Below the pieces are notes generated by a model. It was given only the letters and a program-made list of their open reading frames with translations. It did no database searches and had not been told where the DNA came from. From assembly GCA_016840305.1 (NCBI GenBank), contig JAEOSP010000500.1, positions 1 through 6,144 on the forward strand: DNA of 6,144 nucleotides, read 5' to 3'. This DNA comes from Candidatus Hodarchaeota archaeon. Its GTDB lineage: Archaea > Asgardarchaeota > Heimdallarchaeia > Hodarchaeales > Hodarchaeaceae. Below, in pieces: positions 123 through 6,144 of this stretch; position 1 is the first letter of the stretch; each line of letters starts with the position of its first letter. A program made the position numbers and the translations under genes.

Positions 123-1580
123 ATGGTTTTAGAATTAACTAAATTAAACGTTGATAAATTTGACCGATTAATTGCCGAGGAAATGGCTAAAATGAAAATT
201 GGGGGATTATCCTATGCTATTCTCAAAGATGGAGAGATAGCGTACAAACAAGGGTTTGGAGCACGAAATCTGGATAAGAACCTCCCTGCTGATGAAAACA
301 CTATCTATAATATTGCTTCTACAACTAAATCTTTTGTTTGTACTGCAATCATGATTTTGGTAGATGAAGGAAAGCTACGAGTGACGGATGCTGTGAAGGA
401 TTATCTTCCTTTAGAGGTTGAGACTGGTAACACTCCAATTACTATTAAGCACTTGATGAATCATACTTCTGGCATTCCCAACCTTGAAAGTGACACTTTT
501 TCATACAATATGGCAAAGGAACAGTTTGTTATACCTGCGAATGCCAAACTGGTGCCAATGTCTTCTGAAGCTGATTTCTTCCGAATTATAAACTCAAGTG
601 GTGATTTTATTCACGAAATCGATCAGTACTTCCATTATAACAATTTTGCTTACGCCATGCTTGGAATGATCATAACCAAGGTTACTGAGAAGGACTATAG
701 AGAGTTTATTAAGGAAAGGATCTTTGAACCGTTGGGAATGACAAGTACTACCTTTTTCCCTGAAGAATTCAAAGATAATGATAATCTAGCTCAAGGATAT
801 CATGTCAATCCGAAGGATAAAGGAGGTAACACTCGGAAGATCGGTATTTTTGAGAATAGATGGGAATTTATGGCCGCCGGTGGTATTTATTCCTGTGTGA
901 AGGATCTTTCAACATATATGCTAATGCATTTAGGAAAGGGTACATACAAGGATGTTACAGTTATTAGTGAAGCTTCTTCTGAGGAAATGCAACGTAATTC
1001 ACTCCAACCTGGTACTCTAGCTGTAAAAGTAGTGAGTAATTATACTCCTCAGAAATCCTTAGGCTACGGGTACGGTTTCTTTACCAACTCCGATTTCTAT
1101 GGTCATTTCAGACTTGATCATGGGGGAAACATGTTTGGTGGTACTGCTGATTTTCTCTTTATCCCTACATTGAAGATTGGCCTTGTTGCACTAGCAAATA
1201 ATTATCTTGGTCCACGACCAATCATGGGTTCTATTCTTGCGTTAGTTGCTGGTACTCCCGAGGACCGAGTCCACTTTCTGGTTGAAAGAAAGCATTTCAA
1301 GAAATTGAATGGCATATATGAGGGCTTTAATGAAACTGATCGTCTTAAGATTTCGGGTGAATTTTCTTCTCTCACCATTCAAAGCATTGACAAACATGAA
1401 TTTGCTATTCCCCCTACTGTCTTTTTTCCCAATGAGAAGAATACCTTGACTCCTATGGAATTTTATACGAGATTTCCTGGAGGTGCTAAATTCATTGTCT
1501 TTTTCGAAGAAATGGATAGAACCCTCTGGTTCAATTATGAACGTTTACGATTCAAAAAAATCGGGAAATTGTATGATTAA
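123..1580 (+). CDS. Beta-lactamase-related serine hydrolase (class C / PBP-like fold)
   Basis: This 485-residue protein belongs to the beta-lactamase family of serine hydrolases (AmpC, D-Ala-D-Ala carboxypeptidases, esterases, archaeal Pab87-type peptidases). All three active-site motifs are visible. The SxxK motif is STTK at residues 66-69, with Ser66 as nucleophile and Lys69 as general base. The YxN motif is YNN at 172-174. The third motif is HGG at 333-335, inside LDHGGNMFGG. Supporting family features are LMNHTSGIPN (111-120), FEPLGM (201-206) and AAGGIYS (251-257). The catalytic domain spans roughly 11-375. Residues about 390-485 form a C-terminal beta-rich extension like those of many family members. 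There is no signal peptide or membrane segment, so it is probably cytoplasmic. The family covers peptidases, esterases and lactamases, so the substrate cannot be read from sequence; calling it an antibiotic-resistance enzyme would be unjustified. The start is supported by GAGG eight bases upstream. The gene stands alone and is convergent with the next. Confidence 0.93.
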   Translation: MVLELTKLNVDKFDRLIAEEMAKMKIGGLSYAILKDGEIAYKQGFGARNLDKNLPADENTIYNIASTTKSFVCTAIMILVDEGKLRVTDAVKDYLPLEVETGNTPITIKHLMNHTSGIPNLESDTFSYNMAKEQFVIPANAKLVPMSSEADFFRIINSSGDFIHEIDQYFHYNNFAYAMLGMIITKVTEKDYREFIKERIFEPLGMTSTTFFPEEFKDNDNLAQGYHVNPKDKGGNTRKIGIFENRWEFMAAGGIYSCVKDLSTYMLMHLGKGTYKDVTVISEASSEEMQRNSLQPGTLAVKVVSNYTPQKSLGYGYGFFTNSDFYGHFRLDHGGNMFGGTADFLFIPTLKIGLVALANNYLGPRPIMGSILALVAGTPEDRVHFLVERKHFKKLNGIYEGFNETDRLKISGEFSSLTIQSIDKHEFAIPPTVFFPNEKNTLTPMEFYTRFPGGAKFIVFFEEMDRTLWFNYERLRFKKIGKLYD

Positions 1581-1632: not shown

Positions 1633-1650
1633 AGCCAGTCCCACTGATCC

Positions 1651-1807
1651 CATACGGGTTACTAGTTCAAAATTTGCAAGGAAATTTTCAGTCGTCTCGT
1701 ATTTTTAATTTATTTATTAAGAAAAGCCTTCAGGAGTCATTCACTAGAGTGGGTGTTGATTTAATTAAAAAAAGAGTCTTTCTGTTCTTATGTCTGAAGG
1801 CCTTTCT
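1651..1807 (+). repeat. Dispersed structured intergenic element, copy 1
   Basis: First of three diverged copies of an element of about 150 bases. It opens with CATACGGG, as copy 3 does at 5199-5206. It contains CAGTCGTCTCGT (1689-1700), GCCTTCAGGAGTCA (1726-1739), AGAGTGGGTGTTGATTT (1746-1762, identical in copy 3) and a terminal block beginning CTTATGTCTGAAG (1787-1799). GCCTTCAG at 1726-1733 is perfectly complementary to CTGAAGGC at 1794-1801. The stem extends outward, after one A/C mismatch, by GAAA (1721-1724) pairing with TTTC (1803-1806), giving 12 pairs closing a loop of about 60 bases. The outer stem of copies 2 and 3 is degraded here to GGTT (1657-1660) against AGCC (1725-1728). No convincing ORF. 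It sits between convergent genes, so it could be an independent small RNA, part of the hydrolase 3' UTR, or a non-coding repeat. I do not recognise the family. Confidence 0.75.
1767..1773 (-). terminator. Possible T-run terminator of the membrane protein gene
   Basis: Seven A on the plus strand read as seven T on the minus strand, about 83 bases beyond the stop codon at 1856-1858. It is the first clear T-run for the minus-strand transcript and lies inside repeat copy 1. There is no strong adjoining hairpin. Support comes only from the known use of T-runs in archaeal termination. Confidence 0.25.
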
Positions 1808-1855
1808 ATTAGGAAAATGACATATGAGGATAATTATCTATTGAAGATTATCTAG

Positions 1856-3760
1856 CTATTCTTCTTCTTCGATTTCAGCTGTTTCTTTTACAATCACCTC
1901 ATCCTTAATTTCTTCAGTTATATCTTTCTCGATCACTTCCTTCTTGGTGACAGGTTTTTCTCTTAAATCGCGTTCCTTTATTGACAATTCATCAGCTTGT
2001 AGCTTTAATTCAGTTTGTGTATCGTGTGTGACACCTGTTCTTCTCCAATGAGTCATCTTCCAAAAAACCCATCCAATACCAAAAAAGAAACCACCATAAA
2101 ATGCTAGGGATTCCACATCTGCAAAGATGTAGAATGCATCGAACAGGAGTTCAGAAAAGCCAATAATTGATAGGAAAGGGGCATCGGGAATATTCAATTC
2201 GTAAATGTAACCTAATATGTTTGTTACGATCAAGACAAAAGCTGTTGAGATTAGCAAGAAGAAAACGTCCCCTCGTTCTTTTACACGGGGGGTTATTAAT
2301 GTGACAGATAGGAATTTGAATGCTCCAGAAAAAATTATTATGATGGGAATGATTAGAAAAGGAAGGCTTTTCAGTGTAGGCCAGATTGTGGCAAACCATT
2401 CTGAAATAGGAATAATTATTACTTCGTACACCGTTTCAAAGAAATCAGGTACAGTAATTCCCAGATCAATATTAAATGTGATTACCAACATACTAACTAT
2501 TCCCGCAAAACTATCCCAAAGAAGAGAAATCCACACTCCAAACAGAATTAAATATTTAGAAAGGACTACTACCTTTGGAGGAGATCTAGCTAGAATTCGT
2601 CCTGTACGAGCAACCTCTACACCTCGGGATAATGCAGATATGATTGCAATTAGAGCAAATCCTTCAGCGAAACCTACGACAAGAGTTGCTACTGAAGTTA
2701 TAATAATGAAGTCTAGTTGGATTAAGCTTGGAATATCCACAATCCGTCCTAAGAATGCACTAATAAAATTGTTAACGATATTTCCCAGGACGAAAGCAGA
2801 TTCTGATACTCGTAGAACATCCCAAACATCCACAATACTCCAAAGAAACACTGGTAATAACCAAAGGACAATTATTAGTGGGATTATTACTAATAAATTG
2901 ACGCTAGTTATAAATGCTGTAATTTTCACTCCTCTCCACACTATTAAGAAAATGATCTTTAGTATTTGATATACCCACCAAACTAACGCCAACAGAGATA
3001 AAAATATAATAATTGGTCCTACGGCTTCATTGGCGCTGCTACTAGTGAGTTGCGTCATCATTGCAAAATATATCGACGGTGGAATAAGGATCCACAAGAA
3101 TAGTTTGTAAATCGCTCTAATTCCTTTTTTTTCATTTTCTTTCACTTCCTCCTCTTTTTTAAAACGTTTAACTATTCTCCTCCTTGCATAGGTTGTCAAA
3201 ATGGCTAAAAAGACTATGATGGAGAATCCAATTATTATTAAGAAAAAGATACCAAAATACAAATTTCTTGCAGTTTGGTAAAATTCTCTCCCTCCTAAAT
3301 TAGAAAGACCTACAATATCAAAGTCTAGTGACTCTAGGCTAATTCTCATTAAGAGAACTGGGATTATTACTAAGTAAGTTTCTCTTAGATGTACATCTAA
3401 CAGTAAATAAATTGAAGAACAGAATGACAAAGCTAGTATCAGTAAAAGCAAAAATCTCAAATTGTATACCATATTTCCATTGTCATCCCTCAAACCAAAC
3501 TCTTCTGCCATATCAAATAGAATAATTTTTGAAAAGCCAACTAGTACAAGAATAAAAGCTAGTGATGACAGTATTATGACTATCAAGTAATTAGTATAAT
3601 TGTAATCTACTGTTGATAGAACATTCAAATCTAACCCAGAAGAGAAATTCATTGTTAAGACTAAGAGCAAAGTTATAAAACCTAATCCTAATAACTTGAC
3701 GATTTGTTCAGATAGGTACTCTCTCCATGGAATACGAGTACTTTTTTCTTTTACTAACAT
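1856..3760 (-). CDS. Large polytopic membrane protein of unknown function
   Basis: This 634-residue integral membrane protein belongs to no family I recognise. By eye there are about 12-14 hydrophobic segments, roughly at residues 22-38, 57-82, 100-122, 127-140, 167-190, 218-236, 246-275, 279-305, 351-377, 399-430, 443-460, 465-489, 497-520 and 550-570. The N-terminus is basic (KEKSTR, PWRE), which suggests it faces the cytoplasm. Two charged stretches probably lie in the cytosol: a Lys/Glu-rich loop at 192-216, and a C-terminal tail at 571-634 rich in Glu, Lys and Asp, ending in EIEEEE and possibly a coiled coil. The most family-like stretch is the polar loop at about 376-400, with SALSRGVEVARTGRI and SPPK. 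No transporter Walker motif, CAAX-protease motif or glycosyltransferase DXD is obvious. The start is supported by AGGAAGG (3768-3774 on the plus strand) seven bases upstream, and an in-frame TAG at 3773-3775 excludes an N-terminal extension. It is transcribed divergently from proC. Confidence 0.85.
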   Translation of the reverse strand: MLVKEKSTRIPWREYLSEQIVKLLGLGFITLLLVLTMNFSSGLDLNVLSTVDYNYTNYLIVIILSSLAFILVLVGFSKIILFDMAEEFGLRDDNGNMVYNLRFLLLLILALSFCSSIYLLLDVHLRETYLVIIPVLLMRISLESLDFDIVGLSNLGGREFYQTARNLYFGIFFLIIIGFSIIVFLAILTTYARRRIVKRFKKEEEVKENEKKGIRAIYKLFLWILIPPSIYFAMMTQLTSSSANEAVGPIIIFLSLLALVWWVYQILKIIFLIVWRGVKITAFITSVNLLVIIPLIIVLWLLPVFLWSIVDVWDVLRVSESAFVLGNIVNNFISAFLGRIVDIPSLIQLDFIIITSVATLVVGFAEGFALIAIISALSRGVEVARTGRILARSPPKVVVLSKYLILFGVWISLLWDSFAGIVSMLVITFNIDLGITVPDFFETVYEVIIIPISEWFATIWPTLKSLPFLIIPIIIIFSGAFKFLSVTLITPRVKERGDVFFLLISTAFVLIVTNILGYIYELNIPDAPFLSIIGFSELLFDAFYIFADVESLAFYGGFFFGIGWVFWKMTHWRRTGVTHDTQTELKLQADELSIKERDLREKPVTKKEVIEKDITEEIKDEVIVKETAEIEEEE

Positions 3761-3772
3761 TATTTTTCCTTC

Positions 3773-3802
3773 CTATTTGTTACAAAATCCTTCTTTTGTC
3801 AT
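3773..3802 (-). other. Nine-codon upstream ORF / leader of the membrane protein gene
   Basis: On the minus strand an ATG at 3802-3800 opens a short frame, MTKEGFCNK, that stops at TAG (3775-3773). The stop overlaps the AGGAAGG ribosome binding site (3768-3774) of the membrane protein gene and is in frame with it. The upstream ATG has its own weak AGGA four bases before it. Bases 3782-3799 also form a perfect 6-bp hairpin (ACAAAA with TTTTGT on the minus strand) whose six-base loop reads GAAGGA, a second Shine-Dalgarno-like sequence. Whether it is translated is unknown; a nine-codon frame can arise by chance. Confidence 0.3.
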
Positions 3803-3826
3803 TTTATCCTACTGATGGCTAATACT

Positions 3827-3848
3827 AAGAAGAAAAACCCCTCTTCTT
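3827..3848. other. Perfect 7-bp inverted repeat in the upstream region of the membrane protein gene
   Basis: AAGAAGA at 3827-3833 is complementary to TCTTCTT at 3842-3848, with an 8-base spacer AAAACCCC. On the minus strand the spacer reads GGGGTTTT. If the membrane protein transcript starts upstream of this point, the hairpin would be in its 5' leader; otherwise it could be a protein-binding site. No direct evidence of function. Confidence 0.35.
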
Positions 3849-3955
3849 TAATAACCCAGTTTTTCCTTTCAAGCCACTCATTCTTACTTTTCATTAGCAA
3901 GAAATTTTTTTCTAAAAAATCCAAACAGCAGTATTTCAGTATAGCCTCATATTAC

Positions 3956-3974
3956 CGGAAATTTCATATATAAA
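3956..3974 (+). promoter_or_regulatory. BRE/TATA-like promoter element upstream of repeat copy 2
   Basis: CGGAAAT (3956-3962) fits the purine-rich TFB-recognition element and is followed after four bases by TATATAAA (3967-3974). In the plus direction, transcription would begin near 3995-4000, about 60 bases before repeat copy 2, and would run through it towards proC. The core is nearly symmetric: read on the minus strand it is CTTTATATATG, also a good archaeal TATA box. That would serve the membrane protein gene with a leader of about 185 bases. The BRE-like sequence favours the plus direction, but bidirectional use is possible. Confidence 0.4.
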
Positions 3975-4055
3975 GTTATAGATTTTTTTTATTTTTTCCG
4001 TGTAACGTGGAGTAAAAGGTTTTATCATTGATTTATTACTCTCTCACTAATCACA

Positions 4056-4201
4056 CAAGGGCTATTGTTTCTAAACAATGTGGGAATTAACAGTCCTCTT
4101 GTTTAATTAAAATTAATAGCCTTAAGGAGTCAGTCAATAGAGTGTGTTCGATAACGAGTAAAATTAGGAGAATTTCTGTTCTTATGTCTGAAGGTCTTTC
4201 T
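4056..4201 (+). repeat. Dispersed structured intergenic element, copy 2
   Basis: Second copy of the element seen at 1651 and 5199. An outer stem is perfect: GGCTATT (4060-4066) pairs with AATAGCC (4115-4121), and within it AAACAA (4073-4078) can pair with TTGTTT (4099-4104). The block CAGTCCTCTTGTTTAATT (4091-4108) differs from copy 3 at one of 18 positions. GCCTTAAG (4119-4126) pairs with CTGAAGGT (4188-4195) with one mismatch and one G-U pair, the stem equivalent to that of copy 1. The final block from 4181 begins CTTATGTCTGAAG. A copy-specific stem is also possible: AGGAGAA (4166-4172) with TTCTCCT (4198-4204). It lies between divergent genes, upstream of proC and on the same strand. Confidence 0.75.
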
Positions 4202-4250
4202 CCTTTCCATTTCTTTTTAAAACTCGATTATTCTCTTAAGTAGAATCCCT

Positions 4251-4288
4251 TTCCATTTAATGTAGTTCTCAAACTTAGGAGAATGGAA
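4251..4288. promoter_or_regulatory. Inverted repeat abutting the proC promoter (candidate operator)
   Basis: TTCCATT (4251-4257) and AATGGAA (4282-4288) are perfect inverted arms. An inner CTC (4268-4270) with GAG (4279-4281) continues the right-hand side of the stem. The right arm ends directly at the TATA-like element of proC (4289-4300), a position where a bound regulator could block TBP/TFB. The left-arm sequence also occurs as a direct repeat in CCTTTCCATTT at 4202-4212 and 4248-4258. No regulator is identifiable in the window, and chance is possible in AT-rich DNA. Confidence 0.3.
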
Positions 4289-4300
4289 TTTAATAATATA
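4289..4300 (+). promoter_or_regulatory. TATA-like promoter element of proC
   Basis: TTTAATAATATA lies about 42-53 bases before the proC ATG, preceded by purine-rich GGAGAATGGAA. Expected transcription start is near 4320, giving a leader of about 20 bases that carries the AAGGAG ribosome binding site at 4325-4330. Motif and spacing only. Confidence 0.4.
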
Positions 4301-4341
4301 CGTTATTTTTTTCTTAGAGTACCAAAGGAGAAATTCTGACT

Positions 4342-5193
4342 ATGAGTAATAAACCACGGTTATCAGAATCTATAGGAGTAATCGGTGCAGGAAAAATGGG
4401 AACTGCCCTTATTAGAGGATTATTGAAAGAAAAACTGGTGAATCCTGATCAAATACTGGCATATGACATTTTAAACGAGCTGCTAATGGATTTAGTTGAA
4501 GAAACTGGTATCAATGCAGCATTAAATAATCAGCAAATAGTTGAGCAAAGCAACATTATTTTCATCTGTGTTAAACCCCAAGTATTTGTAACAACTCTCC
4601 AAAAACTGCAAATTGCTTTCACAAGTGATCATTTGGTAATATCAATCGCTGCTGGTGTACCTTTATCGACTATCGAAAAATTAACTGGAAATGCACGATG
4701 TATAAGAATAATGCCCAATATGCCTTTTCAGGTAGGAGAAGGGGCAGCTGGATATAGTCTTGGAACCAGAAATGATAACCGAGACTCAGAAATTGTCGAA
4801 ATCGTCTTTGGCTCTTTAGGAAAGGTCTTTCAGTTCCCAGAATACTTGCTAGATGCTGTTACAGGACTTTCAGGAACAGGTCCGGCTTATGTATTTGTGT
4901 TTATTGAAGCATTAGCCGATGGAGGTGTTTTAGCAGGATTACCCCGGCGTGAAGCACTTATTTTGAGTGCACAGACCGTTATGGGTGCTGCTAAGTTACT
5001 TTTAGAACAAAATATACATCCAGGGATTCTGAAGGATGCTATTATGTCTCCAGGAGGCACTACAGCTTCAGCTTTACAATTAATGGAAGCTCGTGGTTTT
5101 CGTTCAATTTTAATTGATGCTGTGGAGGCTGCAACAAAAAAATCACAATTTTTAGGCCAAAATAATCTTTCACAATCCGATCACCTTGTATGA
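4342..5193 (+). CDS. proC: Pyrroline-5-carboxylate reductase
   Basis: It catalyses the last step of proline biosynthesis, NAD(P)H-dependent reduction of 1-pyrroline-5-carboxylate to L-proline, in the cytoplasm. At 283 residues it has normal family length. The N-terminal Rossmann domain carries the dinucleotide-binding motif IGAGKMG (14-20), the VKPQ motif (77-80) that follows the strand IIFIC, and the MPN motif (124-126). The C-terminal helical dimerisation and catalytic domain contains SGTGPAY (177-183, usually SGSGPAY), the helix EALADGGVLAGL (189-200), and the family signature around MSPGGTTASAL (235-245). The ATG is supported by AAGGAG at 4325-4330, 11 bases upstream. No proA or proB lies in the window, and neighbours are not co-oriented, so it appears to be transcribed alone. 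The stop is only five bases before repeat copy 3, so the transcript probably carries that element as its 3' UTR unless it ends first. No disrupted motif is visible. Confidence 0.97.
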   Translation: MSNKPRLSESIGVIGAGKMGTALIRGLLKEKLVNPDQILAYDILNELLMDLVEETGINAALNNQQIVEQSNIIFICVKPQVFVTTLQKLQIAFTSDHLVISIAAGVPLSTIEKLTGNARCIRIMPNMPFQVGEGAAGYSLGTRNDNRDSEIVEIVFGSLGKVFQFPEYLLDAVTGLSGTGPAYVFVFIEALADGGVLAGLPRREALILSAQTVMGAAKLLLEQNIHPGILKDAIMSPGGTTASALQLMEARGFRSILIDAVEAATKKSQFLGQNNLSQSDHLV

Positions 5194-5198
5194 ATTCG

Positions 5199-5352
5199 CA
5201 TACGGGCTATTTCTAGTTAAAAAAGTGTGGAAATGTTCAGTCCTCTCGTTTAATTGTAATTAATAGCCTTTAGGAGTCAGTTACAAGAGTGGGTGTTGAT
5301 TTTAGTAAGAAAATAGCCAAATGCTTCTGATCTTATGTCTGAAGATCTTTCT
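5199..5352 (+). repeat. Dispersed structured intergenic element, copy 3
   Basis: Third copy, starting at CATACGGG five bases after the proC stop. The outer stem is perfect: GGCTATT (5205-5211) with AATAGCC (5262-5268). The long-range stem is CTTTAG (5268-5273) with CTGAAG (5339-5344), where copy 1 has a C-G pair and this copy a U-G pair at the same position. Conserved blocks are CAGTCCTCTCGTTTAATT (5238-5255), TAGGAGTCAG (5271-5280), AGAGTGGGTGTTGATTT (5286-5302, identical to copy 1) and the terminal block beginning CTTATGTCTGAAG (5332-5344). It can alternatively form a local hairpin, GATCTT (5329-5334) with AAGATC (5342-5347), around the loop ATGTCTG. A T7 run follows, which favours the plus strand as the transcribed one. 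Confidence 0.75.
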
Positions 5353-5354
5353 AG

Positions 5355-5361
5355 TTTTTTT
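5355..5361 (+). terminator. T7 run after repeat copy 3, probable terminator
   Basis: Seven consecutive T directly follow the element, 162 bases after the proC stop, and there is no earlier plus-strand T-run in this gap. It is the likely 3' end for proC readthrough or for an independent RNA from copy 3. CTA and T residues here could also pair with AAAATAG (5310-5315 region), giving a weak hairpin before the T-run. Confidence 0.4.
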
Positions 5362-5374
5362 CATCATTTAGAAT

Positions 5375-5491
5375 TTAATCCCATGTTTCATGGATGTTTT
5401 TTCTTTTAATGATTTCTTCTTGAGTATTCATTGTTTCTTTGTATAGTTTCAATATAGCTTCGACCGAGAGGATACCCGACCTTCCTCCCAT
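5375..5491 (-). CDS. Possible small protein of 38 residues
   Basis: On the minus strand an ATG at 5491-5489 opens a 38-residue frame beginning MGGRSGILSVEAILKLYKE and ending HETWD, with TAA at 5377-5375. The composition (Glu/Lys/Ile-rich, an amphipathic stretch VEAILKLYKE) looks protein-like and unlike a random AT-rich frame. It lies 21 bases after the stop of the upstream membrane protein gene and in the same frame, but two stop codons (TAA, TAA) separate them, so it is not a simple extension. GGTG seven bases before the ATG could be a weak ribosome binding site. A second frame over the same DNA (MVHFYGRKVGY, starting near 5502) looks less convincing. It may be a genuine small downstream gene, a gene remnant, or chance. 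I do not recognise it. Confidence 0.25.
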   Translation of the reverse strand: MGGRSGILSVEAILKLYKETMNTQEEIIKRKNIHETWD

Positions 5492-5512: not shown

Positions 5513-6144
5513 TTAAAATGATGCGACAGGTATCCACCAAATATACTCTCCAAGGAAAAGAATCACATAAACGTTTATGATAATGAAAAGACAAAACCAA
5601 ATAAATTGGATTAAGTTCATTTTTCGTTTTAATACAAAATCTTGGGGAACTTCAATTAACCAGCCATAACACCAGATCATAAACCATAAAGGAATTATCC
5701 AGCAAACTTGAATGCTATAGAACGGGTCCAGAATTTGTATATCCTGAAATGAGGGCAAGCCTGTTTTTTCAGGGATAACAAGAATACCCCATAATATGAA
5801 CAGAATTAACACTGAACTCGCTAGAATTACGTGACTAATAATTTGTGACTTTTGCCTCCATACCATATGATTTTTATATGTTAAATAAAGAAAGTAACCC
5901 AACACAATCTCCCAGCTTAACCAAAATAAAAGTTGTAGGTTTGAAATATAAAAAAATCCAATTGTGACTAAAAACATTATGGGGATACCGAATAATACTA
6001 TTAGATCAGTGAACATTTTCCCCTCATAGCCAGAAATATCGAGAAAATATGGGATTCTGGAGATTAACTCAATAAGCAGAGCTGAATAAGCAAATACTAC
6101 TACACCACTAATTACAATCAAAAACCATCTTAGGATATTTTTTT
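5513..6144 (-). CDS. Polytopic membrane protein of unknown function, partial at its N-terminus
   Basis: The frame ends at TAA (5515-5513) and stays open to the right edge of the window. The first in-window candidate start is a TTG at 6121-6119, giving 202 residues, but the frame continues upstream of it as KNILRWF, completing a plausible first membrane helix. The true start is therefore probably at or beyond the edge. Counting from the TTG, hydrophobic segments lie at about 1-20, 37-58, 60-80, 94-117, 136-157 and 170-197, six in all, separated by short loops. The loop at 160-168 (QDFVLKRKM) is basic and probably cytosolic. Tryptophan and tyrosine cluster near helix ends, as in real membrane proteins. 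No catalytic or transport motif is evident and I do not recognise the family. It is convergent with proC. Confidence 0.7.
   Translation of the reverse strand, partial: KNILRWFLIVISGVVVFAYSALLIELISRIPYFLDISGYEGKMFTDLIVLFGIPIMFLVTIGFFYISNLQLLFWLSWEIVLGYFLYLTYKNHMVWRQKSQIISHVILASSVLILFILWGILVIPEKTGLPSFQDIQILDPFYSIQVCWIIPLWFMIWCYGWLIEVPQDFVLKRKMNLIQFIWFCLFIIINVYVILFLGEYIWWIPVASF

What the first reader, a model, noticed from the sequence alone, without database searches (positions are those of the whole stretch)
1651..5352. Three-copy structured intergenic element of about 150 bases, always on the plus strand
Copies at 1651-1807, 4056-4201 and 5199-5352 share ordered blocks separated by diverged spacers: GGCTATT, CAGTCCTCTYGTTTAATT, AGCCTTNAGGAGTCA, AGAGTGGGTGTTGATTT and a nearly invariant 3' block starting CTTATGTCTGAAG. 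Every intergenic gap fully inside the window has one copy, all in the same orientation although the genes alternate in strand. That argues against a gene-linked cis-regulator and for a repeated small RNA gene, an RNA-like mobile element, or a dispersed repeat family. No terminal inverted repeats or target duplications were seen, and I recognise no known RNA family.
Basis: partly seen in the sequence, partly recalled or inferred. Interest (0 to 1): 0.72.

Follow-up and report, generated by a model that had tools for sequence, protein, structure and literature searches.

The report
Scattered short repeat in Asgard archaeon
Three related copies of a roughly 160-base DNA element lie between the genes of a relative of the Hodarchaeales archaea; they look like an old, scattered repeat family of a generally known kind rather than a proven RNA gene.

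Summary
The repeat is real: copies near 1642-1807, 4045-4201 and 5192-5352, all on the plus strand, 71-78% identical, with alignment scores 25-35 s.d. above 500 shuffles. The host is a Hodarchaeales-like Asgard archaeon. No reading frame is open in all three copies, though one is open through copy 1. "Structured" is not supported: single folds have z 0.04, -1.24, -0.64, the consensus fold z -0.15, and Rfam has no match. The block-and-spacer pattern is marginal (p 0.02-0.16). One orientation in 3 of 3 has a chance of 0.25. No terminal inverted repeats or target duplications were found. Best reading: a family of short interspersed intergenic repeats, amplified long ago and decaying, probably non-autonomous mobile DNA; how it moved is inferred. 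No copy was found outside the window, but no Hodarchaeales genome could be searched as such, so copy number, orientation bias and covariation stay untested. The kind is known; this family did not appear in the paper listings I saw.

The parts
1642..1807 (+). copy 1 of the repeat, between convergent genes; has a 9-column insertion after CAGTCGTCTCG and a deletion in the GGCTATT block; one plus-strand frame is open through the copy
   Evidence: profile match and pairwise alignment; frames
4045..4201 (+). copy 2 of the repeat, between divergent genes; diverged in the AGAGTGGGTGTTGATTT block
   Evidence: profile match and pairwise alignment
5192..5352 (+). copy 3 of the repeat, between convergent genes; its left edge touches the TGA stop codon of the proC-like gene (5191-5193)
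   Evidence: profile match and pairwise alignment
123..1580 (+). context: serine hydrolase of the beta-lactamase/penicillin-binding superfamily (PF00144)
1856..3760 (-). context: 634-aa protein rich in hydrophobic stretches, probably a membrane protein; no Pfam or NCBIfam match
   Evidence: membrane reading is by eye
4342..5193 (+). context: pyrroline-5-carboxylate reductase (ProC); best named relatives are Hodarchaeales/Heimdallarchaeota
5513..6142 (-). context: open-ended ORF of 209 aa, hydrophobic by eye; no Pfam or NCBIfam match

Best explanation
The three stretches are old copies of one short (about 160 bases) interspersed repeat of a Hodarchaeales-like archaeon, most likely non-coding. 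Most likely it is non-autonomous mobile DNA: a master sequence was copied to new places by an enzyme encoded elsewhere, copies that landed in genes were lost, and those between genes stayed and decayed. Shown: homology, intergenic position, no frame open in all three copies, no terminal inverted repeats or target duplications, no fold signal, near-equal pairwise divergence. Inferred: that it moves or moved, that a transposase or another enzyme acted in trans, and that it has no host function at most sites.
For: Homology far beyond chance. Pairwise identities of 72%, 78% and 71% (Jukes-Cantor distances 0.34, 0.27, 0.37) are close to a star, as expected of separate copies of one source. Little similarity outside the element: comparing whole gaps raises the scores only from 63.5 to 67.5, from 80.5 to 80.5 and from 74.0 to 79.5. 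No frame is open in all three copies. All 3 copies wholly intergenic, chance about 0.0016 for random placement. Three-way identity is only marginally clumped. The C-terminus of ProC reads SDHLV in 5 of the 6 closest of 18 aligned relatives, and ends at SDR, SDL or SDQ in 11 of the 12 others, which would fit copy 3 having landed at the stop codon in the ancestor of the close group; this is suggestive only.
Against: No terminal inverted repeats or target duplications, and by eye no common insertion site. No recognisable transposase in the window, though two of its four proteins match no family. The ends are not perfectly sharp: gap-level alignments run on weakly to 1626/4031 on the left of copies 1 and 2, and to 4269/5417 on the right of copies 2 and 3. 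No copy found by six pattern scans of viral contigs, one of genome contigs, or blastn of copy 3 in phages and plasmids. Five runs of 6 or more invariant columns and a clumping test at p 0.02-0.06, an internal promoter-like stretch in 3 of 3 copies and an open frame through copy 1 leave room for a function.
Confidence: 0.57

Rival explanations
1. A multi-copy family of small RNA genes or RNA regulators of about 150 nt, kept by selection on the conserved blocks.
For: Long invariant blocks at AGCCTTNAGGAGTCA and CTTATGTCTGAAGNNCTTTCT; weak clumping of invariant columns, p 0.02-0.06; same strand in 3 of 3 copies; an AT-rich internal stretch scoring 10 of 13 for a crude promoter pattern in 3 of 3 copies; parts of the two blocks can pair (GCCTTNAGG with TCTGAAGGY), without a break only in copy 1.
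Against: No copy folds clearly better than shuffles (z 0.04, -1.24, -0.64); consensus fold z -0.15 on the plus strand and +1.18 on the minus strand; 1 of 30 predicted pairs has a two-sided change; no shared upstream promoter-like or downstream terminator-like flanks; no Rfam match at gathering score and only weak ones below it.
Confidence: 0.2
2. A local cluster of repeats: a DNA-level site (binding site, recombination or chromosome-organising sequence) duplicated only in this neighbourhood.
For: Three copies within 3.7 kb, one orientation; no copies found elsewhere in the collections searched.
Against: The searches elsewhere were exact patterns or blastn of one copy, in collections whose Hodarchaeales content is unknown to me, so absence elsewhere says little; 71-78% identity is low for a site that must bind one protein along 160 bases (inference).
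Confidence: 0.12
3. The ends or remnants of a larger autonomous element (for example an IS200/IS605-like transposon without terminal inverted repeats, or its guide-RNA region).
For: No terminal inverted repeats or target duplications and one orientation; a small hairpin can form at the right end of copy 3; weak similarity runs on past the right end of copies 2 and 3.
Against: End hairpins are not shared: the first 60 and last 60 bases fold within 2 s.d. of shuffles and differently in each copy; no recognisable transposase or TnpB in the window.
Confidence: 0.08
4. Decayed copies of a short protein-coding sequence.
For: One plus-strand frame is open through copy 1 (54 codons); the same frame in copy 2 has one stop; around the middle the three read alike (QSS[RC]..., ESVTRVGVDF in copy 3).
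Against: No frame is open in all three; in the shared stretch of copy 3 that frame has a stop; variable columns fall 8, 4 and 8 on codon positions 1, 2 and 3, without the excess at position 3 expected of coding sequence; gaps elsewhere in the element are 2, 4 and 5 columns long; two searches with translated minus-strand frames found nothing, the plus frame was not searched.
Confidence: 0.03

Closest known systems
Small interspersed repeats of bacteria such as BOX, RUP and SPRITE of Streptococcus pneumoniae (PMC3049150: abstract, section list and the section on genomic distribution read)
   Same: Short, intergenic, multi-copy, over-represented between convergent genes, slow-moving; considered parasitic by those authors
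   Different: No sequence relation was tested or claimed; the pneumococcal repeats are said to have extensive secondary structure, this one shows none; genome-wide number is unknown here
Prokaryotic MITEs, including those of archaea such as Sulfolobus and Haloquadratum (PMC10969869: passages read)
   Same: Size, position between genes; partial MITE copies without terminal repeats are described there
   Different: Terminal inverted repeats and target duplications, which define MITEs, were looked for and not found
Non-tandem repeats of Ca. Heimdallarchaeum genomes (PMC8813620: passages and the section on repetitive features read)
   Same: Repeats in an Asgard group of the same wider clade
   Different: Those were called at 95% identity over 100 bp and overlap prominently with transposase/integrase families; a family at 71-78% identity would fall under that cut-off

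Membership tests
MITE | terminal inverted repeats | tested here: not met
   gap 1581-1855 has an inverted repeat, but its left arm (1725-1734) is internal; gaps of copies 2 and 3 show no inverted similarity above shuffles
MITE | target-site duplication | tested here: not met
   longest shared flank words 4, 4 and 5; chance median 5
MITE | short and non-coding | tested here: met
   157-166 bases; no frame open in all three copies, although one is open through copy 1
MITE | ends shared with an autonomous element of the same genome | not testable with these tools
   no genome held for the window
Small interspersed intergenic repeat (broad kind) | several diverged copies between genes | tested here: met
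   3 copies in 3 gaps of one 6.1-kb window
Small interspersed intergenic repeat (broad kind) | dispersed over the genome | not testable with these tools
   no genome held; the one genome-contig scan found only one chance match
Structured RNA gene family | fold more stable than shuffles, with covariation | tested here: inconclusive
   no stability signal; three sequences are too few for a covariation test
Known Rfam family | score at or above the gathering score | tested here: not met
   0 matches in the window; in E-value mode, of 12 matches only sno_ZL8 lies on a copy (22.4 bits, cut-off 52, E 0.24), and one other overlaps copy 2 by 2 bases
IS200/IS605-type non-autonomous element | conserved subterminal hairpins at both ends | tested here: not met
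   ends fold within 2 s.d. of shuffles and differently in each copy
Integron attC site | ends complementary so that the single strand folds into a hairpin | tested here: not met
   no consensus fold pairs the two ends of the element and the single-copy folds do not agree; the core-site consensus was only looked for by eye, from recall

The most novel reading that the evidence does not exclude
A SINE-like, very dense family of non-coding repeats fills the intergenic space of a lineage of Asgard archaea, the prokaryotes closest to eukaryotes: if the three copies per 6.1 kb held across the genome, there would be hundreds of copies per megabase, moved by an enzyme that leaves neither inverted repeats nor target duplications.
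Probability: 0.2. Interest if true: 0.7.

Novelty: new member of a known kind. Interest (0 to 1): 0.4.

Why it matters
Short interspersed repeats shape bacterial genomes, but my searches showed little on them in Asgard archaea, and the published repeat survey that I read in part used a 95% identity cut-off under which a diverged family falls. If the density seen here holds genome-wide, it would show that the archaeal relatives of eukaryotes can carry a heavy load of short repeats. If it is only local, it is ordinary.

Tried and rejected
Known RNA family: rejected. tRNA: none in the window. A short ORF opened by the invariant ATG (MSE[GD]LS plus unrelated tails, 21, 19 and 24 aa in all) was considered and set aside: the tails do not match. 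Copies in other collections: the genome-contig pattern scan gave 1 locus (L001, a Bacteroidales contig); in the 300 bases read around it I saw none of the other blocks. Six pattern scans of viral contigs gave 0, 0, 1, 5, 9 and 8 loci. All 23, with L001, were scored with the three-copy profile: 28 hits at E up to 10, of which 23 lie on the searched pattern itself and 5 elsewhere at E 2.1 or worse; the best is E 0.025 over 28 bases; I take all as chance. Two scans for relatives of two flanking genes in viral contigs found none. blastn of copy 3 (1 of 3 copies) against phages and plasmids: none. Translated minus-strand frames of the element against the protein collection, in case other copies had been called as spurious ORFs: none. 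Literature: ten searches; no paper on such a repeat in Hodarchaeales appeared among the titles listed, but searches listed only the top 20, 20, 20 and 6 of 5,530, 34, 3,004 and 15 papers, and three papers were opened, all in part. Integron attC sites, IS200/IS605 ends and C/D-box RNAs were considered and not supported.
Full report
Host. The ProC protein of the window (4342-5193) has its best named relatives in Candidatus Heimdallarchaeota archaeon B3_Heim (95% identity), Candidatus Hodarchaeales (89% and 85%), a Promethearchaeota archaeon (87%) and Heimdallarchaeota archaeon LC_3 (84%), among the best 120 listed. The window is therefore taken to be from a Hodarchaeales-like Asgard archaeon; NCBI places Hodarchaeales in phylum Candidatus Hodarchaeota. 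No whole genome is held for it.

The repeat. Three stretches, about 1642-1807, 4045-4201 and 5192-5352, are homologous. Pairwise local scores are 63.5, 80.5 and 74.0, against means of about 12 in 500 dinucleotide-preserving shuffles each, highest 25.5. Over 149, 157 and 157 ungapped columns, identity is 72%, 78% and 71%. Intergenic stretches compared in the reverse orientation stay below the highest of 100 shuffles, except stretch 1581-1855 against its own reverse complement (26.0; shuffles mean 13.8, highest 19.5), which reflects an inverted repeat inside copy 1 (arms 1725-1734 and 1794-1803). The profile finds no fourth copy in the window. Edges: the profile could not reach beyond my cuts; alignments of whole gaps run from 1626 and 4031 (copies 1 and 2) or 1648 and 5196 (copies 1 and 3), and to 4269 and 5417 for copies 2 and 3; against the cut copies the scores rise by 4 and 5.5 points where the alignments are longer.

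The blocks AGCCTTNAGGAGTCA and CTTATGTCTGAAGNNCTTTCT are in 3 of 3 copies. GGCTATT, CAGTCCTCTYGTTTAATT and AGAGTGGGTGTTGATTT are each altered in one copy. Whether conserved columns clump was tested two ways. With gapped columns left out, the longest invariant run (14) has p 0.07 and the share of columns in runs of 8 or more p 0.16. With each gap counted as one change, three measures give p 0.02-0.04 over the whole alignment and about 0.06 over its core. Constraint on blocks is thus possible but not shown.

Structure. Single copies fold with z 0.04, -1.24 and -0.64 against shuffles. The plus-strand consensus fold has energy -9.66 kcal/mol, of which the covariation term is +1.67, with 1 of 30 pairs changed on both sides; the minus strand gives -2.68 with 0 of 15. 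Against 300 column shuffles they lie at z -0.15 and +1.18. Rfam has no match at gathering score; in E-value mode the only one of 12 matches lying on a copy is sno_ZL8 at E 0.24 and 22.4 bits against a cut-off of 52, and one more overlaps copy 2 by two bases. With three sequences a covariation test has almost no power, so an RNA is not excluded.

Coding. No frame is open in all three copies. One plus frame is open through copy 1 (54 codons), the corresponding frame of copy 2 has one stop, and every frame of copy 3 has at least three. In the stretch where the three read alike, variable columns fall 8, 4 and 8 on the three codon positions.

Signals. A crude archaeal promoter pattern scores 9, 8 and 9 of 13 at its best upstream of the copies (best of 33 positions each), against an average best of 8.0 in 12-position intergenic strips; T-runs in the 30 bases after the 3' end are 2, 5 and 7 long. 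Inside the copies, sites at or above the window's 99th percentile (9) number 11, 8 and 5, and an AT-rich stretch near TTTAATT reaches 10 in 3 of 3; whether that is more than base composition was not tested.

Mobile-element features. The longest words shared between the left and right flanks are 4, 4 and 5 bases, with a chance median of 5, so no target duplication is seen. There are no terminal inverted repeats, and the first and last 60 bases fold within 2 s.d. of shuffles and differently in each copy. All three copies are wholly intergenic (chance about 0.0016 if placed at random). One orientation in 3 of 3 has a chance of 0.25, and one copy in each of three gaps about 0.14 given that they are intergenic.

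A hint of insertion. Copy 3 abuts the proC stop codon. I aligned 18 of the 119 listed relatives (P0002-P0018 and P0021; the rest, among them P0019, P0020 and P0022-P0027 at 71-86% identity, were not aligned). ProC ends in SDHLV in 5 of the 6 closest (91-96% identity; the sixth, P0006, ends in SDHRG), and at SDR, SDL or SDQ in 11 of the 12 others (P0009 ends in SDRLL). An insertion at the stop codon in the ancestor of the close group would explain this, but so would point changes; the DNA of the relatives was not available to me.

Search for other copies. The single genome-contig scan found one locus that I take as a chance match. Six pattern scans of viral contigs gave 23 loci without a copy, two scans with flanking proteins none, and blastn of copy 3 against phages and plasmids none. 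Two searches with translated minus-strand frames in the protein collection gave none. These do not show that the repeat is rare: how much Hodarchaeales DNA the collections hold is unknown to me, and exact patterns miss diverged copies.

Comparison with known kinds. In the paper on pneumococcal repeats (PMC3049150; abstract and one section read), BOX, RUP and SPRITE are small interspersed repeats, over-represented between convergent genes and taken to be parasitic. The MITE review (PMC10969869; passages read) lists archaeal MITEs and partial copies without terminal repeats. The Heimdallarchaeum genome paper (PMC8813620; passages and one section read) reports non-tandem repeats over 3% of the genome lengths, with repeats called at 95% identity over 100 bp, overlapping prominently with transposase and integrase families. 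The present repeat fits the broad kind, short interspersed intergenic repeats, but fails two defining features of MITEs.

Verdict. A real repeat family of a known kind that I did not find described. Its mobility is the best inference (0.57), an RNA gene family the main rival (0.2). The finding would gain interest only if a genome-wide count confirmed the density seen here.

Noticed in passing
window 1725-1803: Inside copy 1, AGCCTTCAGG (1725-1734) and CTGAAGGCCT (1794-1803) form an inverted repeat 59 bases apart; the match is imperfect in copies 2 and 3.
   Followed up: partly
window 1790-1855, 4184-4243, 5335-5409: The invariant ATG of the 3' block opens ORFs of 21, 19 and 24 aa that begin MSEGLS or MSEDLS and then differ.
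   Followed up: partly
window 1642-1807: One plus-strand frame is open through the whole of copy 1 (54 codons), and part of it reads like the same frame of copies 2 and 3, which have stops.
   Followed up: partly
window 5179-5193: The ProC C-terminus SDHLV is shared with 5 of the 6 closest relatives, while 11 of 12 more distant ones aligned end at SDR, SDL or SDQ.
   Followed up: partly
window 1703-1716, 4101-4114, 5249-5262: An AT-rich internal stretch scores 10 of 13 for a crude archaeal BRE/TATA pattern in all three copies.
   Followed up: no
window 1856-3760 and 5513-6142, minus strand: Two proteins that look hydrophobic (634 aa, and 209 aa open-ended) without any Pfam or NCBIfam match.
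   Followed up: no
window 123-1580: Serine hydrolase of the PF00144 superfamily with a sub-threshold Pab87 octamerisation domain at its C-terminus (26.4 bits, cut-off 27).
   Followed up: no
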